A stretch of DNA of 41,548 nucleotides. It comes from Thermoplasmata archaeon (lineage in GTDB: Archaea > Thermoplasmatota > E2 > UBA202 > JdFR-43). The stretch spans positions 1-41,548 of the forward strand of contig JAGGZK010000062.1 in NCBI GenBank assembly GCA_021162065.1. Direction: 5' to 3'. This document shows positions 343 to 31,267 of the stretch, in pieces (the first letter of the stretch is position 1; each line of letters starts with the position of its first letter). The notes below the pieces were generated by a model. It saw only the letters and a list, made by a program, of their open reading frames with translations. It was not told the DNA's origin and searched no databases. The position numbers were made by a program, and so were the translations under genes.

Positions 343-1635
343 ATGATCATAGACCCGTGGAGCAGCCAGAATTATGATTATGATAAGTTATTCGACAATT
401 TTGGAATCTCCAGATTCGAGGAGCACTTGTGGAAGGATTTTCCTTCCCCGCCCTTCTTCTTCAAGAGGGGCATCGTCTTTGGCCATCGTGGATTTGATGC
501 CATAAAATACAGCATAAAGAACAGCAGTCCATGGGCTTTGCTCACCGGTTTAATGCCCTCAGGCAAGATGCATTTCGGCCATAAAATAGTGATTGATCAG
601 GCAATATACTATCAGAAACTGGGAGCGGATATAAACATAGCAGTGGCAGACATGGAGGCATATGCCACCAGAGGCTATTCTCTGAAGGAGGCGAGAAAGA
701 TAGCCATTGAAGAATACATCCTGAACTACATAGCCCTCGGATTAAAACCGTGCCGGATATATTTTCAATCGGAGAACCATCATGTCAAGGACATCGCATA
801 TCTCCTCTCAAAGAAATCCAATCTCTCGCAGGTAAATGCCATCTATGGCTTCTCTGGCTCCACCAACATGGCCCATGTGTTTGCTCCATTTATTCAGACA
901 GGAGACATACTTCATGTTCAGCTTGAGGAATATGGTGGCCTGCGCCCCACTCTCGTGCCTGTGGGGGTTGATCAGGATCCTCACATAAGGTTCTGCCGCG
1001 ATCTCGCTTCCGCCAACCGCCTTTACAGCATAATACCGCAGAATGGCAAAATAGGAATTTTTGTGAAGATTGATGAAAACATAAAGGAACTGCTGGATGA
1101 GGCAGAGGAAGTCATAAAGGAAGAAGGAGAGGTGGTGGAGAGAAAGGATGGCTACAAGGCGATATATGCAAAAGTGAATGATCTATATGCTCTGGACAGG
1201 AAACTGGCAGAGGTGGAGAGGAAACATGATGCCTATAGTTTTCTCCTTCCGTCCTCCACATATCATCGCTTCATCTCCGGCCTGGATGGCAACAAAATGT
1301 CCAGCAGCAGGCCCCAGTATGCCCTCTTCCTCACCGATGAAAAGGAACAGATAAAGAAGAAGGTGATGGCGGCGAAGACGGGTGGCAGGATTTCCGCGGA
1401 GGAGCAGAGGAAATATGGGGGAGAGCCTGAAAAATGCATGATATACGAGCTCTTCACCTACGGGATTGTAAAGAATGATGAGGAGTTGAAGGAGATATAT
1501 GAGGATTGCAGGAGCGGAAAGATGCTGTGTGGGCACTGCAAGAAGAAAGCATATGAACTCATAACAGAATTCCTGGATGAATTGAGGGAAAAAAGGGAGC
1601 AGGCAAGGGATGTGATTAACGAATATCTTCCCTGA
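343..1635 (+). CDS. trpS: Tryptophanyl-tRNA synthetase, archaeal type
   Basis: Charges tRNA-Trp with tryptophan in the cytosol. It is a class Ic synthetase of 430 residues, a normal length for archaeal and eukaryotic-type TrpRS. The HIGH-type signature is HFGH at residues 77-80, after GLMPSGKM. The second signature is KMSSS at 318-322, the form expected for class Ic enzymes. The C-terminal part has a CxxC (CGHC) followed by a charged helix. An AT-rich TATA-like element (AATTTAATTAAT, 309-320) lies about 28 bp before the ATG, and a short GGA-type element touches the start. The last 20 bases overlap the 3' end of the convergent Hsp20 gene. Confidence 0.96.
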   Translation: MIIDPWSSQNYDYDKLFDNFGISRFEEHLWKDFPSPPFFFKRGIVFGHRGFDAIKYSIKNSSPWALLTGLMPSGKMHFGHKIVIDQAIYYQKLGADINIAVADMEAYATRGYSLKEARKIAIEEYILNYIALGLKPCRIYFQSENHHVKDIAYLLSKKSNLSQVNAIYGFSGSTNMAHVFAPFIQTGDILHVQLEEYGGLRPTLVPVGVDQDPHIRFCRDLASANRLYSIIPQNGKIGIFVKIDENIKELLDEAEEVIKEEGEVVERKDGYKAIYAKVNDLYALDRKLAEVERKHDAYSFLLPSSTYHRFISGLDGNKMSSSRPQYALFLTDEKEQIKKKVMAAKTGGRISAEEQRKYGGEPEKCMIYELFTYGIVKNDEELKEIYEDCRSGKMLCGHCKKKAYELITEFLDELREKREQARDVINEYLP

Positions 1636-2032
1636 CCTTCTCCAGTTCTATGTCCAGTATGCCATTACGGAAGGTCTTCTTTATTTTCCTCTTCACCTTT
1701 GTGGGGAGAACCACCTCCCTTATCTCATCCCCCATCTTTATCTCAAGCATGTTTCTCCTCAACTTAACCTTTATATCATCCTCCTCGAGTTCCGGCACCT
1801 GGATGGTGATGTAAATCCTTTCATCATCCTCAAAAATATCCTCGTCCTCCTCATAACCTTCCTCAAAATCCTCCTCCTCTCTTTCCATATTTATGGAGAA
1901 CCCGCCGAGAAACGGCTGCATGTTGAAGGCCGTTTTGAATGCATCCTCTATGATTCTTTCCATTTCTCTTACAATGCGCTCAAATTCTTCTGCTTCTTTT
2001 TTCTTTCTCTTTTTATCTTCGTCAAATACCAT
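1616..2032 (-). CDS. Small heat-shock protein, Hsp20 / alpha-crystallin family
   Basis: An ATP-independent holdase chaperone of 138 residues that would bind unfolding proteins in the cytosol. A charged N-terminal arm and a strongly acidic linker (about residues 50-72) precede the alpha-crystallin domain, which ends in the hallmark NGILDIELEK (family form: NGVLxIxxxK). The protein stops a few residues later and lacks the usual C-terminal IxI motif used to assemble oligomers, so its assembly may differ from classical Hsp20. A TATA-like element (ATATTTTAATAC, about 2056-2068) precedes the start. The 3' end overlaps trpS by 20 bp in convergent orientation. Confidence 0.9.
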   Translation of the reverse strand: MVFDEDKKRKKKEAEEFERIVREMERIIEDAFKTAFNMQPFLGGFSINMEREEEDFEEGYEEDEDIFEDDERIYITIQVPELEEDDIKVKLRRNMLEIKMGDEIREVVLPTKVKRKIKKTFRNGILDIELEKVREDIR

Positions 2033-2068
2033 TTCCCAAAAAATAGGAAGGATGTATTAAAATATTTT

Positions 2069-2099
2069 GGAAAAGAAAAGGGAAAAGGAAAAGGGGTGT
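2069..2099 (-). terminator. T-rich terminator after the large surface-protein gene
   Basis: On the minus strand a run of alternating T tracts and C (CCCCTTTTCC type) begins a few bases after the stop codon at 2106. This is a typical archaeal T-rich terminator. It lies just upstream of the TATA element of the hsp20 gene, so termination and initiation signals are packed together. Confidence 0.45.
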
Positions 2100-2105
2100 T
2101 TTGGT

Positions 2106-5100
2106 TTACTTTCTTCTTCTTGCTATGAGAGCCACAAGAGCTATGGCTATGGCAATGCCTATAAAGCCAAATCCTGGGCTCTCTGCTCCCTTCTTAACTT
2201 CCACGGTCTTGGTGGCGCTGTAATAGCCGTCCTTCTGGGCGGTCACGGTTATTGTTCCCTCATCTGTTGGCTTGTATTTTATCTCTCCGTTGGCGTTGGT
2301 TGTTCCTATCGTAACACCATCCACCTTCACAGTTGCGCCCTCCACCGGCTTTCCGCCCTTGGTGGTTATGAGTATTGTCACCTCATTGTCTTTCTCTATC
2401 TCAGAGGACATCACTATCTTCAGGCCAACCCATATGGTTATCTCGCCTGCCTCCTCGCCGCCCACCAGTACCTTTATTGTTCCTGTCTGGAGAGGCACTA
2501 TTCCGAATATCAGTTTGCCGTTCTCATCCGTCTTTCCTACGGGCACAGGATCTGCTCTTGTGGGAGTTATTATCTCCACATCCAGGCCAGCAACTCCCTC
2601 GCCGGTGAGAGGATGCTTCACCTGTATTGTTATCAGATTCTCCTCTGCAAGGAATGCCACCTTCTCGGCCGGCTCAATTATCTCTATCTCCGGTGTCGTT
2701 ATCTCCAGGCTTCCATCGGCATCAACAGCAACGCTTCCCTCTGTCTCTGACATGAACTTGAATGTAACTGTTCCAGTTGCTATGGCCGTAACGTTCTCAA
2801 TGCTTCCTGTTCCGTTTACTATTTTCACCTCTATGCTCTCATTCTCCACATAGGTCTCATAGCTCGCCACTTCCTTTATTCCGTTGATGTAAAGTGTTCC
2901 GTTAACATCCTCACCATTCCATGTTACAGTGAAGGTGAGTGTCATGTTGGTATCGACACCCTTCACCAGCAGACTGGGTGTTACGGTCACCTCAACCTTG
3001 CTCACCTCGAAGGATGGCTCGCTATTCATGTTGTCATGCTTTCTGTCCTGGGTTGTGACATATATGTAGTATGTGCCGGGTTCTGTTTCCACAATATCAA
3101 AGGTATCATTTGCCTTGTCTCCAGTATGGATGGGAGTGAGTGTGTCAACATCGAGATCACCATCATGGAGTTTCTGAAGTTCTGTAGCATTTAATACATA
3201 AAATTCAAAGTTGTCCGCATAGGATTCATTTCCTCTTGTTATATTCACCGTGCATGTTGTCTTCTCACCAGCCATTATGTTTGCCGGAGAGAATGCAACA
3301 TTCAGATCATGGGCGGGCTGTGAGCGTATCTTTGCATATCCATAGAAGGTTTCTCCTCCAGGCGTCTGGAAGACTGCCACCACCATTATGTTTCTGGCAG
3401 CATAATCGGAAGAGATATGGAAGTTGTACACACCTCCCTGTCCCTTGCCTGCTGAGCCGTCTCCGGTAATTGAGCCATTGATCACCTGGCCATCCAGAGC
3501 ATACATTGTTGTGGCATCCTCGTAGTACAGGGTCACCTGAGCGTTGGCTATTATGTTTCCGTAATTATCTGTTACATTAACTGTTATATCCGTGGGTGTA
3601 TCCACTATTATGGTTGCAGGCGTTGCTGTAACAATTCCTCCCTTATTCACTGTAATCGTTTCCCCTGCCACGGCCTCTTTGTCGGGCCATGTGACATTCA
3701 CATAAATCTTTCCGTTTCCATCTGCCGGGAAGACGGTGATGTTCCATATGCCGTCCTTCCAGTACTCATATGCCTCCTTTGGTGGTGTGTAGAGAACATC
3801 TCCCTCCACCTTTATTCTCTCCGTCACGTTCTCCATGTTGTCTCCTATATTGAGATTGCTCTTGTTTCCATAGGTTGTCATATTTCCGCCGAATATCTGT
3901 ATCTGTATCACCTGGCTGTTGTTATCGGGATCAAGAACATTTATCTCCGATGAGGAGAGGAGTTTTGTGTTCACTTCTGGGGCGGCCTGCACCGTATAAT
4001 CTGTCTCGCCCACATATTCCCAGTTTCCGTCTCCTGTGACATCAACCTTCACCTTCATTGTATAGTCGCCTGCATCCCACATGGTGGAGGTAAGATTGAG
4101 GACTTTGCCATCGACGGTAAACATCACCTTTGCCTGGTTGTCCTCTCCCGTGGTATTTACCCATGCATAGAGTTCGCCATCCTTATATATGGATATATTG
4201 TAATCATTGCCCGGGAGAAGCTGTGCTCCATCCTCAGGATATGTTATTTCAAAGGAGATGTACCCAATGTCGAAGCCTCCAACGGCATTGTTGTTGAGGA
4301 GCGTTATATTCGGCTCCACCACATTTACAACCATCACATCATAGCCAAAGGCATTGGGATAGGTTTCATCCCCTATATAAGCGGAGATGTTGTACTCTCC
4401 AGCCCCCTTCTCTCCTATGTTCACATCAAGGAAATGGAATGAGCCATCGGTGCCGGGTGTTGTTGTTGTGAATGAGCCATCCGGATATGTGAGTTTGACA
4501 GTTGCCTGGGTGGCTGCTGCTCCGTTCAGCATTACTGTTCCATCTATGTTCACATATGTTCCTGGCTGCCCGAACTTCACATAATCCGCCTCATTGGGTG
4601 TGGCGTTTACATCAAGGGAAAGAGGAGACACGTCAATGGCTGCAGCATTTGTTGTATCTGCATCCACCTCATCAACAACCCACCACTTTCCGCTCACATC
4701 CAGCAGCACGCTGGACCATCTTATGTATCCGCCCGTCTGTGGGCCCTTTCTCGGTGTATCCTCTCTGGGTGCATAGAGAGCAACGTTGCCCACACCACCC
4801 GTCACCTCTATTGTAACAGTATCATTCCAGTCGGCGGATGTGGGTGTAACACTCAAGCCAGAGGAGGTATTTGCTATGGCAACAGTGAAGTTCTTCATGG
4901 CCTCCTCGGCACCCCACACATCCTTTGAGTAAAATTCCACCAGATGCTTGCCCGGCTCACTTATCACAAATGGATCTGTGTAGGTGTTCCATGCACCACC
5001 ATCTATTCTGTACTTGGTGTCCATCACTCCTATATCATCTGTGGCGGTGAGTGTAACGGTTACGTTTGTCACATACCAGCCCCAGGGCATTTCCTCCTCA

Positions 5101-18660: not shown

Positions 18661-19788
18661 ATGAAAAAACTGGTGATGCTTGCCGTAATCACCCTTTCAT
18701 TGCTCATATCTCTGGATGTTTTTTTTATAGATAAGAAAGTAAATACAGACCCATCAACGGACCATACGGATAACAGGCTATATATAGAACGGGCAAAAAC
18801 CATCCTGAATGGTGGACTGCTTTATAGAGATGTTGTCACCAAGACGCCGCCCCTCATTAACTATCTGCTGGTGCCACCCGTGCTTTTTGGCGCCTCCCCC
18901 CTCGCATTCGAAATATATTTCTCATTTTTTATAGTTCTCACTGTCGCAGCCACATATTACTTCCTTTCATCCATGGACAAAAAACTTGCCCGCCTGGCGG
19001 CCATGGCATTCCTTTTTCTCCCCACCACTCTTGCCACGCCCACCCTATGCAGACAGGATGAGAGCATAGTTGTGTTTTTTTTCATCCTTCCCCTTCTAAT
19101 GCTCTACAGAGGGAAGGGAAAAATATGGTATTCCTTTCTTTCCACCATAGGTGTATGGATAAAAATGCATTCCGTGTTTCTACTGCCTCCGTTTTTAATT
19201 AAGGAGAGAAAAGATATTGTAAGGCATATTGGTGTGATAACGTTTCTCTCATTAATTATTGCTCTTCCCTTTCTTATACTGGCATTCGACGGATTCACCT
19301 GGTTTCTCAAATTTTATCTTCTCGGAAAAGGAGAGGAACTTCAGGGCATAAGTTTGTGGCGCCTTCTCGATGCCATAAATTTAACCATTCCCTCCCTTGT
19401 TCTGATATCTTTAATGGGTGTCGCCATTCTTGCAATCTACATAAAATTCCATCACATGCCATTGTGGAAACTGGTTCTTCTCACCCTCATAATCTATTTC
19501 CTCCTTTATCCCAAAATCCATTATGAGTACTTTCTCATGTTTTTTGCCCTTTCCATACCATATATGATTGAGAAAAAAAGGCACATCATGCTTCTTTATT
19601 CCATGTCCATCCTCTCCAGCGCGGTATTGCTCATAGAGCAGAGGTACCTCGACTGGGGAGTAATGACGGAAGGAAAATGGTTTTTTGTCCCCCTCGCCAT
19701 ATTGGCCATGATCGCGGTGGATATGGTGCTTATATATCTTTTCCATCATATCCTTAAGGAGAAGTTCTGGCTTGATGAGGAAATATGA
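18661..19788 (+). CDS. GT-C-like polytopic membrane protein, probable glycosyltransferase
   Basis: A 375-residue membrane protein with about 9-10 hydrophobic helices. The first external loop contains the acidic TDHTDNRLYIERAKTIL stretch and then YRDVVTKTPPLINYL, resembling the first loop of GT-C glycosyltransferases of the GT39/GT87 kind. CRQDESIVVFFF in a later loop is also like that group. It is divergent from the flippase/GT-C pair and part of the same surface-glycan region. The TATA-like AATTTAAT (about 18632-18640) lies about 25 bp before the ATG. The exact family is uncertain. Confidence 0.66.
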   Translation: MKKLVMLAVITLSLLISLDVFFIDKKVNTDPSTDHTDNRLYIERAKTILNGGLLYRDVVTKTPPLINYLLVPPVLFGASPLAFEIYFSFFIVLTVAATYYFLSSMDKKLARLAAMAFLFLPTTLATPTLCRQDESIVVFFFILPLLMLYRGKGKIWYSFLSTIGVWIKMHSVFLLPPFLIKERKDIVRHIGVITFLSLIIALPFLILAFDGFTWFLKFYLLGKGEELQGISLWRLLDAINLTIPSLVLISLMGVAILAIYIKFHHMPLWKLVLLTLIIYFLLYPKIHYEYFLMFFALSIPYMIEKKRHIMLLYSMSILSSAVLLIEQRYLDWGVMTEGKWFFVPLAILAMIAVDMVLIYLFHHILKEKFWLDEEI

Positions 19789-19832
19789 ACATATGGTGAG
19801 AAATTTTTTATTCAACAATTCCTTTAGGTTTG

Positions 19833-21083
19833 ATGAGAGGATTCCAAATCATGCTTTCAATCACCATAATAATCGCCTCATTTTCCTTTCCTTATGGCTC
19901 AAAAGCAGCCGATTTTGATGGATTTCATGACGCCATAAGAGAGTGGTGGAATGTTGATGCATTTATAAGAGGAGAGGGAAACTACAGCATAACCGCATCC
20001 TTTGAATATGAAAAGGAGACACCTGCCGCCAACCTTTTTCTTACCTTTTTTAACTGGGACACCAATGAGACCCATGACCTTGGCTCTTATGGAGACAATA
20101 TTTCCGCCATCCACTGCGAGGGTAAAAATTGCATAAGAGTTTTCTATGGCAATTCATGGCTTGAAGGAGCATATCCCCACTACACGTTCCATTTTGATAG
20201 AAAAAATTTTACCATACACCTCAACCTCACCGCCATCTCACCCCCTCAATTTGTGGCGGAGGATGAAGGAGGGGTACTCCCCATGGGATTGGGATATTAC
20301 AAATACCTCTTCATTCCAAAATGCAGCATTGAAGGATGGATTGTGCATGGAGGGAAGAGAGAAACCATTAATGGCACGGGATACTACGAGCATGTATGGG
20401 GGAACTGGAGCTATCACCACCCCATGAGGGGTGCAACCATAAAACCATACATAAATCTTACAAAATGGTGGATGAGGAACAGCAATGTCTCCTTAAATGG
20501 CCTTATCATCTCCTCCAACAATCCCTTTGGCTATGACTGGGCATGGATCTCCTTTGATAATGGATGGACCCTATTTTATGGCGCCATTCCCTTCTGGGTG
20601 GACGGCATCCCCTTTTCCATATTCTACCTCTATGATGGAGAGAAGATAAGGGAATTCGGGAGGATTAGTTATGAATATCTGGATGGAGTCTTTTATCATG
20701 GCACCTACATTCCAACTAAGATAAAGGTACATGGCAAGGGAGATATGGACATATTCTTCGAGATGAAGATGGGCCATCAACCCCATATATACCAAGACAG
20801 TCTCTCATCATTTTTTTGGAGAGAACTTATTTTATATGAATCTCCGGGTGTCGTATCCGGTTTTTATATTGGAAAAGATGGTGGCAAAAAAAACCTGACA
20901 GGAAGATGTGAAATGGAGATGGAGAGGCAGGTGAGTATTTTTGGTTACAATCTTGCCGGAGTGGTGAAAATAGAGAGAGGGTTCGAGTTTATTTTTCTTT
21001 CAACCCTGCTCAACCTTTCCCTAAAAATTCGCCTAACCTTTTTCCCCCTCTCGATAGATTTTTCTTTTTCTCATATAGGATAG
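19833..21083 (+). CDS. Secreted lipocalin-like protein of the CrtC/AttH type
   Basis: A 416-residue exported protein with a signal peptide at about residues 1-26 (hydrophobic IMLSITIIIASFSF, then SKAA). The hallmark of the CrtC/AttH/Svf1 lipocalin-like superfamily is present: GTGYYEHVWGNW, followed by GYDWAWISFDNGWTLFYGA. In bacteria CrtC hydrates carotenoids; here the role is unknown and no carotenoid gene is nearby. Many N-x-S/T sequons suggest glycosylation. The frame opens with a TTG at 19830, but the ATG at 19833 lies about 25 bp after a TATA-like TTTTTTATTC. The last 51 bases overlap the convergent DedA-like gene. Confidence 0.75.
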   Translation: MRGFQIMLSITIIIASFSFPYGSKAADFDGFHDAIREWWNVDAFIRGEGNYSITASFEYEKETPAANLFLTFFNWDTNETHDLGSYGDNISAIHCEGKNCIRVFYGNSWLEGAYPHYTFHFDRKNFTIHLNLTAISPPQFVAEDEGGVLPMGLGYYKYLFIPKCSIEGWIVHGGKRETINGTGYYEHVWGNWSYHHPMRGATIKPYINLTKWWMRNSNVSLNGLIISSNNPFGYDWAWISFDNGWTLFYGAIPFWVDGIPFSIFYLYDGEKIREFGRISYEYLDGVFYHGTYIPTKIKVHGKGDMDIFFEMKMGHQPHIYQDSLSSFFWRELILYESPGVVSGFYIGKDGGKKNLTGRCEMEMERQVSIFGYNLAGVVKIERGFEFIFLSTLLNLSLKIRLTFFPLSIDFSFSHIG

Positions 21084-21617
21084 AATAAATCCCGTGGCTA
21101 TGGTTATTAGTATGAGGAGGAAGGTGGCCCTCTGCGCCACCCCCTTTTCAAACATGGAATAGAAAAAGGCGGATAAAGCAATGAGGATGGAAAACTTTAC
21201 CACCCCCCCAATCACCACATAGATGATGGATTTCCTATAATCCCAGTTATTCACGGCAATAAATGCACCGGTGTAGGGAAGTACAGGTGCTATTCTGTTG
21301 ATGAGAAGCATTCTCTCATCCTGGAGTATCATCATGGAAGAGTATTTACTCATTATTTTCTGGATAAATTCTGGCATTCCGAACTTTTTCACGGCAAAAT
21401 AGAGCATGGTGTTGCCAAAAAAAATGGAAAAGGCGGCAAGCATTACCAGCGCCACCCCCCAGGCTATGGAGGGATGGGTGGAATATATAACTAGAAGAAA
21501 AAGTTCGGGGAGAGCCGGAAAAAGCATGGCATCTATAACGAATATGATGAATAATGCGGCCATCATTCCTGCATCACCAAAGCCATTGAAGAAGGCTATT
21601 ATTTCATCCCCGAGCAT
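21033..21617 (-). CDS. DedA/VTT-like small membrane protein
   Basis: A membrane protein of about 194 residues with 4-5 hydrophobic segments. INRIAPVLPYTGAFIAVNNWDYRKSIIYVVIGGVVKF resembles the RxxPxxR/GxxxMxxxxF region of DedA/SNARE-associated (VTT) proteins, a superfamily that includes lipid scramblases. The similarity is weaker than for classical DedA. The frame also contains an ATG at 21692 that would add 25 residues. I chose 21617 because an A/T-rich TATA-like element (about 21640-21648) lies about 25 bp upstream and the protein then begins shortly before its first helix. Confidence 0.6.
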   Translation of the reverse strand: MLGDEIIAFFNGFGDAGMMAALFIIFVIDAMLFPALPELFLLVIYSTHPSIAWGVALVMLAAFSIFFGNTMLYFAVKKFGMPEFIQKIMSKYSSMMILQDERMLLINRIAPVLPYTGAFIAVNNWDYRKSIIYVVIGGVVKFSILIALSAFFYSMFEKGVAQRATFLLILITIATGFILSYMRKRKIYREGEKG

Positions 21618-21849
21618 TGTCTCAACATCACACCCTTCTTTTTTTATTTTTCGAAATATGTGAAAGGAAGGAAGAACAGAGATATTTTGCATTTCTACCT
21701 TAAAAAGGTGTGATGATTGAGTGTTTTATACCTTAATGCCTTGCTCTGTTTTCTGGCAATAAATTTCATCTTCCTGGGCATCAACATCCCATAATTGGAT
21801 GTGAAATCCAAAACATATAAACTTTTATATCCCTTCGCAATTTTTCTCC

Positions 21850-22104
21850 ATGGAAAAATACTGGCAGAGATGGTTGTTTTATCTTGATGTGCTTGTCCTT
21901 GTAATTTTCGCCGTCGCCACAGTTTACATGGCAAAGGATGCCTTCTGGGCGGGATATTACAGGGCCTTCGGCTCCTCCCACATAAATGAGTATGGAAATG
22001 CCCTCTGGCATCTTGCAAGAGATGTGGCCTTTCAGGTGGCAGCCATTGGATGGATAATCTATCGTCTCTTCCGTTGCCAGTTCCTTCTGCTCAGAAAGCC
22101 ATAA
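21850..22104 (+). CDS. Small two-helix membrane protein of unknown function
   Basis: An 84-residue protein with two hydrophobic segments (YLDVLVLVIFAVATVYMA and VAFQVAAIGWIIYRLF). The loop between them is rich in aromatic residues and histidine (AFWAGYYRAFGSSHINEYG). A TATA box (TTTATAT, about 21824-21830) lies about 22-25 bp before the ATG, so a leaderless transcript is likely and supports a real gene. It lies directly upstream of the SRP RNA promoter. I recognise no family. Confidence 0.62.
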   Translation: MEKYWQRWLFYLDVLVLVIFAVATVYMAKDAFWAGYYRAFGSSHINEYGNALWHLARDVAFQVAAIGWIIYRLFRCQFLLLRKP

Positions 22105-22463: not shown

Positions 22464-23915
22464 ATGGATACGAGAGCCAGGGTGGTGGACTTCTTTCAGA
22501 AAAGAGGATTGTTGATTCAGCCGGAAGCAGTGGACTTCATTGCATCTCTGGGAGGGGTGGAAATCTGCAAGGAGGTTTTGAGGGAGCTGGGAGAGAGGCC
22601 TTTCATAATAACCGTAGAGATGGTGAGGAAAATTTTTGAGAAAAGAACGCCGCCTCCGCCGCCTGCCCCGAGAGTGATAAAATTTGAGGAGGGGAGCAAA
22701 AAGGAAGAGGGAAAGGGTGGTTTGAGAGTCATAAGAGATGTTACCGGCAATAGTACATGCGAGGGAAAGATAGATGACTTTGTGAATCTCTTCAGAGATA
22801 GATTTGACAGAGTGAGTGCCCTTCTCAGAAAAAGGCAGGAAATGAGATATGCGATGCCCATAAAGAGGGCAAAAAGAATGGATGGAGATGTTTCCACCAT
22901 AGGGATGGTAAGGGATGTCTCTCCATCAAAAAATGGCCTTTTCATTGATATAGAGGACTACGATGATTCCATAAAGGTCTACGTGCCCAAAAACGTTGAT
23001 CCAATGGTATTAAACGACGAGGTGATAGGAGTGGTGGGACGGCGGAGAGGAGACGTGCTCTTTGCCACAAGCATTGTGAGACCTGAGATTTCACTGGAGA
23101 GAAAGAGAAACTTTGCATCTGAGGAATTCTATGTCGTTTTCCTGTCTGATTTGCATGTTGGAAGCAAAAACTTTCTTGAGGAGGAATGGAATGGATTCAT
23201 AAAATGGATAGGAGGGAAAAACGGGAATGAAAGGCAGAAAGAGGTGGCAAAAAAAGTTAGATATATCGTCATATCTGGCGACGATATAGATGGAGTGGGA
23301 ATATATCCGGGACAGGAGGATGACCTCTCCATAGAGGATGTTTATCAGCAGTATGAGGTTCTTGCAGAAAAGTTGAAGGACATTCCTGAAGAAATAGGAA
23401 TAATCATGCAGCCGGGCAACCATGATGCAGTAAGGCCAGCTCTCCCCCAACCATCTTTTGAAAGAGAAATAAAGGATATTTTTTCATCTCTCAACATTTC
23501 CTTTGTGGGAAACCCCTGCTATATGGAACTGGATGGAGTGGTTGTTCTCTCCTACCACGGCCAGTCCATACAGGACTTCGCCACATACCTCCCCGGAATG
23601 AACCAAAATCAGCCAGCCGAGATAATGAAGGAGATGCTGAGGCGCCGACATATGGCGCCCATATACGGCGGCGTCTCCTCCCTTGCACCTGAAAAGCAGG
23701 ATTATATGGTTATAGATGTTATCCCTGATGTATTTGTCACCGGTCATGTGCATGTTACCGCTGTGGAGACATATAGAAATGTTCTTCTCATAAATGCCTC
23801 CGCATGGCAATCCCAGACGGAATATCAGAAAATGATGAATTTTATGCCTGACCCTGCGAAGGCAGTAATAGTCAACTTTGGGAATCTTATTCCCTCAGCC
23901 ATTCACTTCGCATAA
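22464..23915 (+). CDS. polB: DNA polymerase D small subunit (DP1), 3'-5' exonuclease
   Basis: The proofreading subunit of the euryarchaeal replicative polymerase PolD, 483 residues from this start. An N-terminal helical domain (about 1-65) and a proline/glycine-rich linker precede an OB fold (STIGMVRDVSPSKNG...IKVYVPK). The calcineurin-like nuclease domain has SDLHVGS, SGDDIDGVG, QPGNHDAVR, SYHGQSI and TGHVHVTA, all metal-binding blocks. The frame could begin with a GTG at 22446, but that lies inside the SRP RNA terminal helix. The ATG at 22464 is one base past the end of that RNA, and no TATA box precedes it. The stop codon lies inside one copy of a 54-bp repeat. Confidence 0.95.
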   Translation: MDTRARVVDFFQKRGLLIQPEAVDFIASLGGVEICKEVLRELGERPFIITVEMVRKIFEKRTPPPPPAPRVIKFEEGSKKEEGKGGLRVIRDVTGNSTCEGKIDDFVNLFRDRFDRVSALLRKRQEMRYAMPIKRAKRMDGDVSTIGMVRDVSPSKNGLFIDIEDYDDSIKVYVPKNVDPMVLNDEVIGVVGRRRGDVLFATSIVRPEISLERKRNFASEEFYVVFLSDLHVGSKNFLEEEWNGFIKWIGGKNGNERQKEVAKKVRYIVISGDDIDGVGIYPGQEDDLSIEDVYQQYEVLAEKLKDIPEEIGIIMQPGNHDAVRPALPQPSFEREIKDIFSSLNISFVGNPCYMELDGVVVLSYHGQSIQDFATYLPGMNQNQPAEIMKEMLRRRHMAPIYGGVSSLAPEKQDYMVIDVIPDVFVTGHVHVTAVETYRNVLLINASAWQSQTEYQKMMNFMPDPAKAVIVNFGNLIPSAIHFA

Positions 23916-23964
23916 CCCACCCCCCTTCATTTCCACTGGAAAGTTTATATGGGTGGCGGACTTT
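23911..23964 (+). repeat. Left copy of a 54-bp inverted promoter repeat
   Basis: This stretch matches the reverse complement of 28488-28541 at 53 of 54 positions; the first 47 are identical and the single difference is at 23958 (G versus A). It holds a TATA box (TTTATAT, 23944-23950). Just upstream is a 13-bp dyad TTTCCACTGGAAA (23930-23942), nested almost concentrically in CCACCC (23917-23922) and GGGTGG (23951-23956). It also includes the DP1 stop codon. It promotes the radical SAM gene, whose ATG lies about 29 bp after the start of the TATA box. Confidence 0.9.
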
Positions 23965-23972
23965 AACTTTCA

Positions 23973-25619
23973 ATGATTACTTTGCTGGATGGTTTTGTGG
24001 ACGAGCCATCCTGCCTTGGCGTCCCACCATACATATCGCCATATGTGAGATATATCGCGGGTGCGATTATAGATGCGGGAGAGAAATATGAGTATATCAC
24101 CATCGAGGAGTGGAGAAGAGGTAGAAGAATAAAAGGTGATGTCCTGCTGATCTCCGCAGGGGCAATAGTGCCTGGAAGATATTTGAGGGGTATGCCCATT
24201 TCCTTTAAAGAATTTATAGAAATATGTAAGGGTTTCAGAGGAATCAAAATTCTTACAGGAAGCGCCGCCAGATATGGTTTTGGAGGGGGAGGAGGAAATG
24301 AACCGGTGGATGGAAGCAAATATGTTGACTATGCACCAAAAAAGGATGGGGATGCCTTCATTTATGACTTTTTGCATGGAGAGATAAATGATAGAAGGAG
24401 AAATATGGAAGAATGGAGAAGATGGAGCATTTATGGTGCGGAGGTGGTGAAGCGTCATCCGGATTTTCCTCAACCCCTTATAGCAGAGATAGAAACATAT
24501 CGTGGCTGCATCAGATGGTTTACAGGAGGGTGCTCCTTCTGTATGGAGCCAGCATTCGGGAAACCTGTTTTCAGAGACGAAAAGGATATAGTTGCTGAGG
24601 TGAGGGAGCTAATGAGGTACGGAGTTACAAATTTTCGCCTCGGTGGCCAATCATGCTTTTTCTCATATAAGGCATCGGGTATTGGGAAAAAAGAAAGGCC
24701 CAGGCCAAATGAGAATGCAATTTATCGCATTCTGAAGGGCATTCATGATTTGAAACCTGCCGTGTTCCACATAGACAACGCAAATCCTGCCGTAATTGCT
24801 GAATGGCCTGATATAAGCAGAAGAATAGCAGAAAGAATAGCAGAATACTGCACACCAGGAAATATTGCCGCCTTCGGAATGGAAAGTGCTGATGAAAAGG
24901 TCATAGAAAGAAATAATCTAAATACCTCCCCTGAAGAAGTGATGGAAGCCATAAAAATAATCAATGAGGCAGGAAGAGAAAGAGGAGAAAATGGCATGCC
25001 AAAATTTCTGCCGGGTTTGAATATTTTATATGGCCTGGCAGGAGAAAGTAAGGAAACATACTCAAAAAATTACCGATTTTTAAAAAAGATTGTTGAGCAA
25101 GGGTATTTGCTGAGGAGAATAAATGTGAGGCAGGTAGTTAGTATAAAAGGAGGGAAGACAAAAATTTTGAGACATCTTTTTATCAAGTTTAAAAGAACCA
25201 TAAATGAAGAAATAAATTTACCTCTCCTGAAAAAAATGCTTCCATATGGAACCGTTCTCAAAAATGTTTACATGGAAATTCATAAAGGAACTCAAACCTT
25301 TGGAAGGCAGATAGGGACATATCCCATTCTTGTGGGTATCCCCTATAAAACGGAGATCAACAGATTTGTAGATGTGAAAATTTTTTCCCATTCTTATAAA
25401 AGTGTCACAGGATTGGAATGTCCCCTTAACTTGAATAGAGCATCAATGAAGGCCCTGCAAAGCATTCCAGGAATTGGAGAGAAAAGGGCGGTTAGTATAA
25501 TAAGAGGCAGACCCTACAATACCTTTGAGGAGATTAAAGCAGATATTGGGGATGAAAATGTTATCAAAGAATTAAAGAACTGGGTAACTTTGAGTGATGG
25601 CGTAGAGAGCGAATCTTAA
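23973..25619 (+). CDS. Radical SAM enzyme with C-terminal helix-hairpin-helix (COG1031 type)
   Basis: A 548-residue enzyme. The likely 4Fe-4S site is C179-x7-C187-x2-C190 (CIRWFTGGCSFC), an unusual spacing that replaces the usual Cx3Cx2C and is typical of the COG1031 group. Further radical-SAM features are the glycine-rich NFRLGGQSC, the ESADEKVIERNN region and GLNILYGLAGES. Residues about 490-525 (LNLNRASMKALQSIPGIGEK) form a helix-hairpin-helix that could contact nucleic acid. The reaction is not known. Transcription should start at the TATA box of the 54-bp repeat, giving a leaderless mRNA. Confidence 0.86.
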   Translation: MITLLDGFVDEPSCLGVPPYISPYVRYIAGAIIDAGEKYEYITIEEWRRGRRIKGDVLLISAGAIVPGRYLRGMPISFKEFIEICKGFRGIKILTGSAARYGFGGGGGNEPVDGSKYVDYAPKKDGDAFIYDFLHGEINDRRRNMEEWRRWSIYGAEVVKRHPDFPQPLIAEIETYRGCIRWFTGGCSFCMEPAFGKPVFRDEKDIVAEVRELMRYGVTNFRLGGQSCFFSYKASGIGKKERPRPNENAIYRILKGIHDLKPAVFHIDNANPAVIAEWPDISRRIAERIAEYCTPGNIAAFGMESADEKVIERNNLNTSPEEVMEAIKIINEAGRERGENGMPKFLPGLNILYGLAGESKETYSKNYRFLKKIVEQGYLLRRINVRQVVSIKGGKTKILRHLFIKFKRTINEEINLPLLKKMLPYGTVLKNVYMEIHKGTQTFGRQIGTYPILVGIPYKTEINRFVDVKIFSHSYKSVTGLECPLNLNRASMKALQSIPGIGEKRAVSIIRGRPYNTFEEIKADIGDENVIKELKNWVTLSDGVESES

Positions 25620-26281
25620 AGATTCAATAAATCAGATAGATGTATTATCTCTATTTTTATCCCATCCTTTTCCAGTATTTTTTTAATTCCATTTACGTGT
25701 CCCTCCCCCATCACTGCCACAATTTTTTCCTCAAATCCCATAATATTTCTGAGATGATGAGCCATATGCTCATTCCTTTCATCAATCAAAATTTTTTTGA
25801 ACTCTGGAAAATTTTTTTCCATTCCATCCATATACAAATCTGGATTGCTTTCGAAATGTTGCACTTCTTTTTCAACATCTTCTTTTGAAAGAAATATCGA
25901 TAGAAAAGCGGATGCAAAGATCTGTATCTTCCTTTTAAAGGAGAGTGATTTCCATAGTTTTCTTATTACTTTATTTGCATTCATATCTATAAAATATATT
26001 TTTGCTCCCGTTGCCGCTGCCGCCTCCATCGCTGCCAGCATCTCATCTCCACTCTCCACTCCAAATTTACTGGAGATTCTCTCCTGCAGTCTGCCAAGCA
26101 TATAGTAGAGGAAATTATTTTTGATTTTTTTTCTTTCCTCCTTTTCAAGAAGGGCCCTTGCTCGTAAATAGTCCAACTCAACAGCCACCGCATCGGGTCT
26201 TTTATCTTCGATAATCTTCCTTACTTTCTCGGCTATGTTGAACACGTGCCCCACACCAACAATGGTTAATTCAACAGCCAT
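25616..26281 (-). CDS. TraB-family protein
   Basis: A 221-residue member of the TraB/GumN superfamily, named after the enterococcal pheromone-shutdown protein; some relatives are predicted metalloproteases. The conserved start is ELTIVGVGHV, then AVELDYLRARAL. The second conserved block is MGEGHVNGIKKIL near the C-terminus, with DERNEHMAHHL before it. The usual C-terminal membrane helices of longer archaeal TraB proteins are absent. Its ATG overlaps the end of hypB by 16 bases, so it is translated from the hypB transcript. The 3' end overlaps the radical SAM gene by 4 bases. Confidence 0.83.
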   Translation of the reverse strand: MAVELTIVGVGHVFNIAEKVRKIIEDKRPDAVAVELDYLRARALLEKEERKKIKNNFLYYMLGRLQERISSKFGVESGDEMLAAMEAAAATGAKIYFIDMNANKVIRKLWKSLSFKRKIQIFASAFLSIFLSKEDVEKEVQHFESNPDLYMDGMEKNFPEFKKILIDERNEHMAHHLRNIMGFEEKIVAVMGEGHVNGIKKILEKDGIKIEIIHLSDLLNL

Positions 26282-26907
26282 TCTGCTAACTCTTCTATTC
26301 CCTCTCCATTGCGAGCATTTGTAAGAAACACCTTCTTTGGTGCTATTCTCTCTATATCCTTCATAATTCTATCCATATCTATTTCCATATAAGGTATCAG
26401 ATCTATTTTATTTATGACTATAAAATCAGATATCTGAAAAATTAGAGGGTGCTTTCTCACCATATCATCTCCCTCTGTTACAGACACTACCACACCTCTT
26501 TTATGGGTCCCCAATTCAAAATCAGCAGGACAAACAAGATTTCCTATATTTTCCACAAATAAGATATCGATTTCATCTATATTCAAATCTTCAAGAGCAT
26601 GCTCCACCAGATGGGCATCCAGATGACATTCCTTTCCTGTGTTTATGTTGACGACGTCCACACCATACTTTTTAATTCTTTTATAATCATCGTCTCCGGT
26701 GACATCCCCCACAATAACTCCTATTCTTTTCTCATTTTTCATCAATTCAATCAATTTCTCTATAATGAGGGTTTTTCCGGAGCCAATGGAACCCATAAAA
26801 TCTATGGCCATTATTCCTCTTTCATCCAGCATTTTTCTAATATTTTCGGCAATTTTCCTGTTTGCCTGATAAATATCCTTTCCCATCTCAACCTCTATTT
26901 TATGCAT
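26266..26907 (-). CDS. hypB: Hydrogenase nickel incorporation GTPase HypB
   Basis: A SIMIBI-class GTPase of 213 residues that with HypA delivers nickel to [NiFe] hydrogenase. It has the Walker A GSIGSGKT (39-46), the metal-binding region GKECHLDAHLV, ENIGNLVCPADFELG and the guanine-specificity motif NKIDL. It lacks the N-terminal CxxCGC motif and the His-rich tract of some bacterial HypB proteins. It lies 18 kb away from hypC-hypA-hypD, paired with TraB. A TATA-like TTTTTAATAAAG (about 26922-26935) precedes the ATG by about 20 bp. Confidence 0.95.
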   Translation of the reverse strand: MHKIEVEMGKDIYQANRKIAENIRKMLDERGIMAIDFMGSIGSGKTLIIEKLIELMKNEKRIGVIVGDVTGDDDYKRIKKYGVDVVNINTGKECHLDAHLVEHALEDLNIDEIDILFVENIGNLVCPADFELGTHKRGVVVSVTEGDDMVRKHPLIFQISDFIVINKIDLIPYMEIDMDRIMKDIERIAPKKVFLTNARNGEGIEELAEWLLN

Positions 26908-27021
26908 ACCTCAAAAAACCCTTCTTTATTAAAAACTTTCCCGCTAATCAATTGAAAGGATATGCGTCCCATCTCATAAAAATTCCTCCCCAAGGGTACA
27001 GGAAGCGGCAAAGGTTTTGTC

Positions 27022-27240
27022 TTATTCTTTCTCCTTTTCCACAAATAATCTGAGGGCATCTATAAGGCCATGAGCATAGTTTATGCACCCAAAGGCGGTG
27101 TAATAATCTCCTTTGGAAAGATAATACTTTGCATCATTATAATATCTGATTGCCATGTCCTTCACCTTTTCATTTCTCACTTTTACATAATTCAACTCAA
27201 ACAACTCTATATCTTTTTTTATTCTCTCCTCAATCTTCAT
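27022..27240 (-). CDS. DUF357 family protein
   Basis: A 72-residue helical protein. The block LSKGDYYTAFGCINYAHGLIDALR is the signature of DUF357, a small archaeal family without a known function. The gene starts inside the end of hflX (11-base overlap), so the two are translationally coupled. Downstream lies 114 bp of apparently non-coding DNA before hypB. Confidence 0.87.
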   Translation of the reverse strand: MKIEERIKKDIELFELNYVKVRNEKVKDMAIRYYNDAKYYLSKGDYYTAFGCINYAHGLIDALRLFVEKEKE

Positions 27241-28480
27241 AAAAGATCACCTCTCCGCCTGCTTTTTCACATCTTCCCACTATCTTATCTCTTATCCTCT
27301 CGTTTACTCTCAACTCTACTATAACAGCATCTGAGAAGGATATATTCTCCACCACCATTTCCTCACTGAGCCAGCTGAGTAGTCCATTAAAATTCTGCAA
27401 AGGAAGTTTTAGAATCATTTTATGTGTCCTTGGTAAAATTTCATGTACTTTTTTCACCAATATCTCAATATTTTCCCCGGTTACCGCAGAAAGGGGGACA
27501 CATGGTAAATTAAAGGTTTCCTCGATATACCTTTTCTTTCTATTCACCTCTTCTCTTCCCATCATGTCCATTTTATTAAGTGCTATTATTATGTCGTTTC
27601 CATTATTTCTAAGAGAAAATATCTCCCTTAGCGAATTCTCCGTTTTCTCTTTCAGCTCTTCCAAACTCTCGCTTCCATCCACTACTAGAATTACCACATC
27701 TGCAAGTGTTATTTCTTCAAGTGTGGAGTGAAAAGCATCTATCAACCAGTGGGGCAAATCCCGTATAAATCCTACGGTATCGGTGACAAGCAAGGGGATA
27801 TCGCTTTTAATCTTTAATCTGCTGGTCTTTGTGGAAAGTGTGGAGAAGAGTCTCCCTTCCACCAGAACTTTTTCACCGGTAAGAGTGTTTAAAAGCGAGC
27901 TTTTTCCTGCATTGGTATATCCCGCAAGCGAAATAAGATAGAATCCTTTGGCCTTTCTTTCCCGCCGCCTTATAGCCCTCTCCTCTTCTATCTTCTTTAA
28001 TTCTTCTCTTATTCTTTTCATCTGTCTTTTTATCATCTCATAATAATCATCCACCACATATTCTCCACCTGCAAGAAATCCGGGGCGCTCCCCTTCCTTA
28101 ACTCTGTGGAATAATTCTCTCACAAAAGGTCTTTCATATCTTAATCTCGCCAATTGTACCTGAAGCATTGCCTCCTTCCTGCTGGCCCTTTTCGCAAAGA
28201 TTTCAAGAATCACTCTTATACGGTCATATACCTTTTTTCCAAGATATTTTTCAAGATTAAACCATTGGGATGGCCTCAGGGCATCATTAACAAAAATGGC
28301 ATCCACATTGTTTTCCATAACAAATTCTTTAACCTCCTCTATTTTTCCTTCTCCAAGATAAAGAGGTGTTGTGCCTTTTCGAATCTGGATGAATTCCTTT
28401 TCTATTTCATATCCCAAGGTTTCCACCAGCTGATGAAATTCCTTTGTATCCTGTTTGGCAGAGAGTATTATTCCATTCAC
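27230..28480 (-). CDS. hflX: Ribosome-associated GTPase HflX
   Basis: A translational GTPase that binds the large ribosomal subunit and splits stalled or hibernating ribosomes in the systems studied. It has 416 residues from this start. The N-terminal domain has LYLGEGKIEEVKEFV and NDALRPSQWFNLEKYLG. A helical linker follows with RIREELKKIEEERAIRR. The G domain carries GYTNAGKSSLLNTL (187-200), DTVGFIRDLPHWLIDAF and NKMD. The frame stays open to 28615, but the extra 45 residues are unlike HflX and would run through the promoter repeat. The GTG at 28480 lies about 28 bp after the start of the TATA box, matching the radical SAM gene spacing, and gives the normal N-terminus. Confidence 0.93.
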   Translation of the reverse strand: MNGIILSAKQDTKEFHQLVETLGYEIEKEFIQIRKGTTPLYLGEGKIEEVKEFVMENNVDAIFVNDALRPSQWFNLEKYLGKKVYDRIRVILEIFAKRASRKEAMLQVQLARLRYERPFVRELFHRVKEGERPGFLAGGEYVVDDYYEMIKRQMKRIREELKKIEEERAIRRRERKAKGFYLISLAGYTNAGKSSLLNTLTGEKVLVEGRLFSTLSTKTSRLKIKSDIPLLVTDTVGFIRDLPHWLIDAFHSTLEEITLADVVILVVDGSESLEELKEKTENSLREIFSLRNNGNDIIIALNKMDMMGREEVNRKKRYIEETFNLPCVPLSAVTGENIEILVKKVHEILPRTHKMILKLPLQNFNGLLSWLSEEMVVENISFSDAVIVELRVNERIRDKIVGRCEKAGGEVIFYED

Positions 28481-28487
28481 AATCTTA

Positions 28488-28541
28488 AAAGTCTGCCACC
28501 CATATAAACTTTCCAGTGGAAATGAAGGGGGGTGGGTTATG
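28488..28541 (-). repeat. Right copy of the 54-bp inverted promoter repeat
   Basis: This is the partner of 23911-23964, in opposite orientation, with 53 of 54 bases identical. It places the same TATA box, the same 13-bp dyad (28510-28522) and the same outer CCACCC/GGGTGG arms in front of hflX. Similarity ends abruptly on the outer side, and on the inner side just after the promoter. The two copies point inward and enclose about 4.5 kb with five genes. Confidence 0.9.
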
Positions 28542-28679: not shown

Positions 28680-28802
28680 GGGCCCGTAGCTTAGCCAGGT
28701 TGGAGCGCTCGGCTGATAGGAGCCCTTTGATTTGGGGTAAAGCCCTTTTTCAAAGGGCTTGTGGAAACCGAGAGGTCCGGAGTTCAAATCTCCGCGGGCC
28801 CA
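28680..28802 (+). tRNA. tRNA-Ile (GAU) with a 48-nt intron
   Basis: All arms fold. The acceptor pairs 28680-28686 with 28795-28801, with A28802 as discriminator; no CCA is encoded. The D stem is GCTT/GAGC. The anticodon stem is CTCGG (28708-28712) with CCGAG (28768-28772). The T arm is CGGAG-TTCAAAT-CTCCG. The anticodon GAT is at 28715-28717. An intron at 28719-28766 lies between positions 37 and 38, the canonical archaeal site. Its ends can form a helix (AGCCCTTTGA with TCAAAGGGCT), consistent with a bulge-helix-bulge for the splicing endonuclease. An A/T-rich TATA element lies about 28 bp upstream. Confidence 0.96.
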
Positions 28803-30880: not shown

Positions 30881-31267
30881 GTGATTGTTACGGCGGCAGT
30901 GATTGTAAGAGACGGCAGGGTATTAATAGCAAAAAGAAAGGAGGGGAAATGGGAATTTCCTGGAGGAGGGCTGGAGGATAATGAAACTCTGGAAGAATGT
31001 CTGAAAAGAGAGCTTATGGAAGAGATGGGGGTGGATGTGGAAAGACTGGAAAAATTTATGTGTGTGGAAAAGGGCGGCATAAAACTACATGTTTTTATTG
31101 CCCGCTACAATGGAAATATTATAAAAAAGGAGCATGAGGCCATCAAATGGGTTGATTTTGAGGAAATAAAAAACTATGAGTTTATGGATGCGGATAGAGA
31201 GGTGGTGGAAGAGCTGCGGAAAAGATGGAATGATGTGGTCGATCTTAAGCAAAGGAAGGGGAGGTGA
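30881..31267 (+). CDS. Nudix hydrolase (MutT-like)
   Basis: A 128-residue hydrolase of nucleoside diphosphate-linked compounds, probably a nucleotide-pool cleaner. The Nudix box is complete: G29-x5-E35-x7-R43-E44-x2-E47-E48-x-G50. The N-terminal TAAVIVRDGRVLIAKRKEGKWEFPGG is typical of MutT-like enzymes. The start is GTG at 30881. The TATA element GTATTTAAAG (about 30852-30861) lies 25 bp upstream and no SD is seen, which supports a leaderless GTG start. Confidence 0.9.
   Translation: MIVTAAVIVRDGRVLIAKRKEGKWEFPGGGLEDNETLEECLKRELMEEMGVDVERLEKFMCVEKGGIKLHVFIARYNGNIIKKEHEAIKWVDFEEIKNYEFMDADREVVEELRKRWNDVVDLKQRKGR

What the first reader, a model, noticed from the sequence alone, without database searches (positions are those of the whole stretch)
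23911..28541. 54-bp inverted promoter repeat enclosing a five-gene, 4.5-kb segment
Positions 23911-23964 and the reverse complement of 28488-28541 agree at 53 of 54 bases, with 47 in a row identical. Both copies point inward and drive the outermost genes, a radical SAM enzyme and HflX, with the same TATA-to-start distance. Between them lie TraB, hypB and DUF357. Such near-identity in non-coding DNA needs a recent cause: inversion through staggered breaks that duplicated the end, gene conversion, selection for co-regulation, or an invertible segment whose flipping would swap which gene sits next to DP1.
Basis: partly seen in the sequence, partly recalled or inferred. Interest (0 to 1): 0.82.

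Follow-up and report, generated by a model that had tools for sequence, protein, structure and literature searches.

The report
Archaeal replication-origin segment that flips
The two near-identical 54-base repeats are paired binding sites for the archaeal protein that starts chromosome copying, each fused to a gene promoter, and across related archaea the five-gene segment between them has repeatedly turned around while the two repeats keep being copied onto each other.

Summary
In detail: 53/54 identity, the only two copies in this 1.38-Mb genome. The unit is not a plain promoter repeat. It is an Origin Recognition Box (ORB, the Orc1/Cdc6 site) abutting a TATA box: TTCCAGTGGAAATGAAGGGG plus G-string, matching the published Methanomassiliicoccales ORB. 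All 17 genomes of the family carry it (14 show both copies, G-strings outward). The enclosed cassette (rSAM-TraB-HypB-DUF357-HflX) is found in both orientations with breakpoints at the ORBs: DP1 abuts rSAM in 8 genomes and HflX in 11. This needs at least 8 changes on the tree, the maximum possible. One metagenome-assembled genome holds contigs for both DP1-rSAM and flank2-rSAM junctions, suggesting coexistence in one population. The two copies evolve in concert, sometimes as far as the start codons; in G010 the far copy even carries the 3' end of DP1. Best explanation: a split chromosomal origin whose inverted ORBs recombine, crossover giving inversion and non-crossover giving homogenisation. 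Methanomassiliicoccales show the same with cdc6 as the cassette, flipped in 3 genomes. Origin activity, flipping rate and mechanism remain untested.

The parts
23911..23964 (+). Left copy of the 54-bp unit: ORB (read on the - strand: dyad TTCCAGTGGAAA at about 23931-23942, then TGAAGGGGGG outward toward DP1) fused to BRE/TATA (AGTTTATAT, about 23942-23950) on the + strand
28488..28541 (-). Right copy of the 54-bp unit: ORB on the + strand (dyad 28511-28522, TGAAGGGG from 28523 outward) fused to TATA (28502-28508) on the - strand
23973..25619 (+). Radical SAM protein with C-terminal HhH, leaderless-type start; one outer gene of the cassette
   Evidence: PF04055, PF12836; synteny
25616..26281 (-). 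TraB/PrgY-family gene, cassette interior
   Evidence: PF01963
26266..26907 (-). HypB-like (CobW/HypB/UreG) GTPase, cassette interior
   Evidence: PF02492
27022..27240 (-). DUF357 gene, cassette interior
   Evidence: PF04010
27230..28480 (-). HflX GTPase (likely GTG start at 28480), the other outer gene of the cassette
   Evidence: TIGR03156
22446..23915 (+). DP1, DNA polymerase D small subunit; fixed outer flank; its stop codon is the outer edge of the left ORB unit
23965..28487 (.). Invertible cassette between the inverted ORBs; found in both orientations relative to DP1 in relatives

Best explanation
The two 54-bp units are inverted origin recognition boxes of a (probably the only) Orc1/Cdc6-dependent chromosomal replication origin, each fused to a TATA promoter that faces inward and drives the outermost gene of a five-gene cassette. 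The two ORBs, kept similar by selection for initiator binding, recombine with each other, by RadA-type homologous recombination or by template switching at forks starting there. Non-crossover events copy one unit onto the other (gene conversion); crossover or equivalent events invert the 4.5-kb cassette. Because ORB and promoter both lie inside the repeat, every flip leaves two intact ORBs and two intact promoters, so flips are nearly neutral and have accumulated to saturation. Shown by sequence: ORB identity, uniqueness, polarity, both orientations, concerted evolution. Inferred: origin activity, Orc1/Cdc6 binding, the recombination pathway and near-neutrality.
For: (1) ORB identity: published archaeal consensus CTTCCAGTGGAAACGAAAGGGGT and M. 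luminyensis ORB GTTCCAGTGGAAATAA-AGGGGT (PMC4153887); window TTCCAGTGGAAATGAAGGGGGG, relatives TTCCAGTGGAAATAAAGGGG. (2) The pattern TTCCANTGGAAAYRADGGGG hits all 17 family genomes, only at this locus, and the reversed control gives 0 hits in 293 genomes. (3) Own Orc1/Cdc6 is the orthologue type crystallised with origin DNA (2qby_A E 3e-117, 2v1u E 2e-111). (4) ORBs of the same polarity flank cdc6 in Methanomassiliicoccales, flank HflX beside cdc6 in G182, G295 and G253, and an ORB lies by cdc6 and DP1 in class outgroup G023. (5) Orientation: DP1|rSAM in 8 and DP1|HflX in 11 genomes, with flanks fixed; 8 changes on the tree against a shuffled mean of 6.4. (6) G021: contig C54 has DP1-ORB-rSAM and contig C8 has flank2-ORB-rSAM, with a 92-bp identical end. 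(7) Concerted evolution: bases 8-14 inward of the dyad are 0.88 identical within genomes versus 0.51 across (p = 2e-4); outward 12-18, 0.77 versus 0.52. (8) G010 flank2 carries ATCCTTCACCTAA from the DP1 3' end, absent from the orthologous flank2 of G012 and G003.
Against: GC skew on the 201-kb contig of G008 does not turn clearly at the ORBs. In this family the initiator gene is not beside the ORBs (cdc6 on another contig), unlike most archaeal origins. 4.5 kb between ORBs is far for a classical origin, and no obvious unwinding element was found. The G021 evidence is assembly-based, with no reads. In G021 the identical repeat is only about 26 bp, short for ordinary homologous recombination.
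Confidence: 0.8

Rival explanations
1. The repeats are a shared transcriptional operator and promoter (a small two-member regulon), kept alike by selection for co-regulation of rSAM and HflX; the inversions are incidental and there is no origin here.
For: A TATA box sits at the same distance from both starts; AGTTTATAT or AATTTATAT adjoins the dyad in every family copy examined.
Against: The motif is the ORB including the G-string, which lies upstream of the promoter and is conserved in lineages lacking the TATA. Identity within a genome extends over bases that differ completely between genomes. No other promoters in the genome carry it.
Confidence: 0.08
2. A programmed phase-variation switch: a site-specific recombinase inverts the cassette to change expression or orientation of the origin-proximal genes.
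For: Inverted repeats, both orientations, mixed junctions in one MAG.
Against: No recombinase in the cassette or among the window ORFs scanned; the two tyrosine recombinases in the genome lie elsewhere. Promoters are inside the repeats, so flipping does not switch them. The unit matches ORB, not a known recombination site. In Methanomassiliicoccales the same architecture flips only rarely (3 of roughly 35 resolved).
Confidence: 0.08
3. Independent rearrangements or misassemblies: orientation differences come from assemblers joining contigs wrongly through a 30-55 bp repeat.
For: All f1/f2 genomes examined are draft assemblies and the repeats are identical over tens of bases.
Against: Repeats are shorter than usual read lengths. 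Both orientations appear in assemblies from independent projects, including a 201-kb contig. A flip of cdc6 also occurs in G140, a single-contig chromosome. Errors alone would not give concerted evolution.
Confidence: 0.05

Closest known systems
Archaeal oriC1-type origin with inverted ORBs (haloarchaeal oriC1, PMC3936714, PMC4010727; Methanomassiliicoccales, PMC4153887)
   Same: ORB dyad plus G-string; two inverted ORBs; neighbourhood of a GTP-binding protein gene and a DNA polymerase gene, with cdc6 paired to a signal-peptidase-like gene, as in the haloarchaeal oriC1 map
   Different: cdc6 is not adjacent in this family; ORBs stand about 4.5 kb apart around a non-replication cassette; each ORB is fused to a TATA promoter; the cassette flips
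cdc6 flanked by ORBs in Methanomassiliicoccales (e.g. ISO4-H5, PMC5011839; M. alvus, PMC4153887)
   Same: Same ORB sequence and outward G-string polarity; segment between ORBs also found inverted in G140, G296 and G318
   Different: The cassette is cdc6 (1.3-1.8 kb) and flips are rare
Inverted-repeat-bounded invertible DNA (phase-variation cassettes)
   Same: Inverted repeats at both ends, both orientations found
   Different: No adjacent recombinase; promoters inside the repeats, so flipping does not toggle expression; repeats are origin elements
Origin-dependent inverted-repeat amplification (ODIRA model in yeast, PMC4689423, PMC10766183)
   Same: Inverted repeats next to an origin rearrange, proposed by template switching at forks
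   Different: ODIRA gives inverted triplication; here simple inversion and conversion, mechanism unproven

Membership tests
Archaeal origin recognition box (ORB) | Dyad TTCCAnTGGAAA followed by a G-string a few bases on | tested here: met
   published consensus
Archaeal origin recognition box (ORB) | Present as inverted pair(s) | tested here: met
Archaeal origin recognition box (ORB) | Cognate Orc1/Cdc6 initiator in the genome | tested here: met
Archaeal replication origin | Initiator gene adjacent to the ORBs | tested here: not met
   cdc6 on another contig in every f1/f2 genome where it was found, no ORB near it; met in outgroups
Archaeal replication origin | AT-rich unwinding region between ORBs | tested here: inconclusive
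   cassette 1-6 points lower in GC than flanks, no distinct element identified
Archaeal replication origin | GC-skew turn at the site | tested here: inconclusive
Archaeal replication origin | Replication starts there; initiator binds | not testable with these tools
   needs marker-frequency analysis or ChIP
Recombinase-driven invertible element | Dedicated site-specific recombinase beside the element | tested here: not met
Recombinase-driven invertible element | Both orientations in one population | tested here: inconclusive
   G021 assembly junctions only

The most novel reading that the evidence does not exclude
The chromosomal origin itself is a continually flipping element: in living populations the ORB-bounded cassette inverts as a by-product of initiation (forks leaving the two inverted ORBs switch templates or recombine), so both orientations coexist and the ORB pair is a built-in recombination hotspot; in addition the ORB-promoter fusion couples rSAM and HflX transcription to Orc1/Cdc6 occupancy.
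Probability: 0.35. Interest if true: 0.88.

Novelty: new variant of a known kind. Interest (0 to 1): 0.76.

Why it matters
In the literature searched I found no report of a replication origin whose paired initiator boxes act as recombination ends, flipping the DNA between them and homogenising each other. It gives a natural record of recombination at archaeal origins, shows an origin parted from its initiator gene, and offers a clean test of whether initiation itself causes inversion, a question studied mainly in yeast amplification. The pattern recurs with cdc6 itself as the flipping cassette in Methanomassiliicoccales, which include cultured strains, so it can be tested in the laboratory.

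Tried and rejected
GC skew as an origin test: raw and third-position, strand-corrected skew on the 201-kb G008 contig and smaller contigs were not decisive. Regulon idea: no third copy in the genome. ORB near cdc6 in this family: none; the best matches have 3-4 mismatches. Site-specific recombinase: none among the window ORFs scanned. A search for the haloarchaeal HflX/oriC1 link in papers gave nothing, so the identity of the 'GTP-binding protein' there with HflX is my inference. Literature searches for ORB-mediated inversion found no precedent. GTDB names of the families were not resolved; named relatives are Thermoplasmata MAGs.

Full report
OBSERVATION. The repeat is real: 53/54 identical, 47 in a row, E = 6e-21, and these are the only two copies in the genome that holds the window (G000, 1.38 Mb, 96% complete, window = contig C42). 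The genes are as described. Both TATA boxes stand 25-26 nt from the likely start codons, typical of leaderless archaeal transcripts (general knowledge).

WHAT IT IS. Read outward, each unit is TTCCAGTGGAAATGAAGGGGGGTGGG. This is an origin recognition box. Published examples are the archaeal consensus CTTCCAGTGGAAACGAAAGGGGT and Methanomassiliicoccales boxes such as GTTCCAGTGGAAATAA-AGGGGT (PMC4153887). In haloarchaea, oriC1 is an AT-rich region between two inverted ORBs whose G-strings are essential (PMC3936714). The strict pattern TTCCANTGGAAAYRADGGGG hits all 17 genomes of the family only at this locus, and the reversed control pattern hits nothing in 293 genomes. Fourteen genomes show both copies; G014's extra hit is a contig overlap of 152 bp, and G001, G013 and G015 show one copy on a short contig. 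G-strings point outward, and in this family a TATA box abuts the dyad on the inner side.

ORIGIN CONTEXT. The genome has one clear Orc1/Cdc6 (461 bits to TIGR02928), of the type solved with origin DNA in Sulfolobus and Aeropyrum (2qby_A, 2v1u; that these were solved with DNA is from general knowledge). In G182, G295 and G253, HflX sits between ORBs next to cdc6. In this family and its sister family cdc6 is on another contig wherever it was found, paired with a signal-peptidase-like gene in 18 of 19 genomes and without an ORB nearby (TIGR02228 match below its cut-off). The published haloarchaeal oriC1 map lists GTP-binding protein, cdc6, signal peptidase and DNA polymerase (PMC4010727). My inference is that the old block split: the ORBs stayed with HflX and DP1, and cdc6 left with the peptidase gene. 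GC skew neither confirms nor denies the origin.

INVERSION. Mapping genes in 27 loci of related genomes shows the cassette interior conserved: rSAM converges on TraB-HypB-DUF357-HflX (G006 lacks TraB and HypB; genus g8 has a distant HypB). Its orientation relative to DP1 is not conserved. DP1 abuts rSAM in G000, G001, G003, G007, G009, G014, G016 and G021; HflX in G002, G004, G005, G006, G008, G010, G011, G012, G019, G020 and, inferred from the other flank, G017. Breakpoints are the ORBs. Flanks stay put: a NUDIX gene lies upstream of DP1 in opposite orientation where both are on the contig (except in the window genome, where it has moved), and the gene homologous to 19830-21083, where it is the neighbour, always points away from the other ORB. 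On a tree of DP1, rSAM, HflX and DUF357 the orientation needs 8 changes, the maximum for 8 versus 11; shuffled labels give 6.4 on average. The likelihood of a two-state model keeps rising to a plateau at fast rates, so only a lower limit on the flip rate can be set. Sister pairs G012/G014, G002/G009 and G001/G008 differ.

COEXISTENCE. In G021, contig C54 reads DP1-ORB-rSAM...HflX and begins at the edge of the HflX-side ORB; contig C8 runs from the other flank through an ORB into rSAM, ending in 92 bp identical to C54. In a single-orientation population C8 should run into HflX. This is what an assembly graph gives when both orientations are present, though a chimeric contig or two binned strains cannot be excluded.

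CONCERTED EVOLUTION. Pairing each rSAM-side unit with the HflX-side unit of its own genome or of another: bases 8-14 inward of the dyad 0.88 versus 0.51, bases 14-24 0.73 versus 0.46, outward 12-18 0.77 versus 0.52, each p = 2e-4 (the limit of 5000 permutations); identity fades further out. Relatedness of genomes would raise, not lower, the permuted values. In G007, G010, G011 and G016 the copies agree up to the start codons. In G010 the far copy carries ATCCTTCACCTAA, the 3' end of DP1, where orthologous flanks of G012 and G003 have other bases. That is a conversion or crossover footprint. In the window the far copy likewise carries CATAA, which is the DP1 stop region in the near copy.

GENERALITY. 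In f25, cdc6 is the segment between inverted ORBs and points the same way relative to its neighbours in the resolved genomes except G140, G296 and G318. G140 is a single-contig chromosome; its length and its start at Cdc6-1 fit strain ISO4-H5 (identity from memory of the length; PMC5011839 states that the sequence starts at Cdc6-1 and has two ORBs downstream).

MECHANISM. Shown: ORB identity, pairing, both orientations, homogenisation. Inferred: initiator binding, origin firing, and recombination between the ORBs as the common cause. Because promoter and ORB are both within the repeat, a flip preserves both, which would explain why it is tolerated. ORBs abutting TATA suggest that Orc1/Cdc6 occupancy may also restrain rSAM and HflX transcription; an Orc1-family protein acting as a transcription regulator is known (Orc1-2, abstract of PMC9738581), but this was not tested here.

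NOVELTY. ORBs and inverted ORB pairs are known; an ORB-bounded cassette that repeatedly inverts with concerted evolution of the boxes was not found in the papers searched. I therefore call it a new variant of a known kind.

Noticed in passing
L046 (G000:C1) 1522-3597: The genome's main orc1/cdc6 gene is far from the ORBs, converging with a signal-peptidase-like gene; the same pair occurs in 18 of 19 f1/f2 genomes.
   Followed up: yes
28680-28802: A tRNA gene that ARAGORN calls tRNA-Glu (28720-28802) looks like an intron-containing tRNA starting at 28680 with anticodon GAT (Ile).
   Followed up: no
L053, L062, L066, L067 (genus g8): The HypB gene in the cassette is only 32-36% identical to the one in the window, against 72-83% in most other family genomes, suggesting replacement within the cassette.
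   Followed up: no
L052 (G006): The cassette lacks TraB and HypB and is only 3.5 kb, yet keeps both ORBs and outer genes.
   Followed up: no
G001:C30, C21, C23: Three extra Cdc6 homologues (38-40% identity) besides the main one, perhaps from plasmids or integrated elements.
   Followed up: no
L047 (G000:C66) 3697-4530: A second, weaker Orc1/Cdc6 homologue (137 bits, below the cut-off) with no full ORB nearby.
   Followed up: partly
18661-22018 and 30881-31267: In the window genome the 19830 and 21033 genes lie on the DP1 side and NUDIX on the other side, unlike relatives: a further larger rearrangement around the origin.
   Followed up: partly
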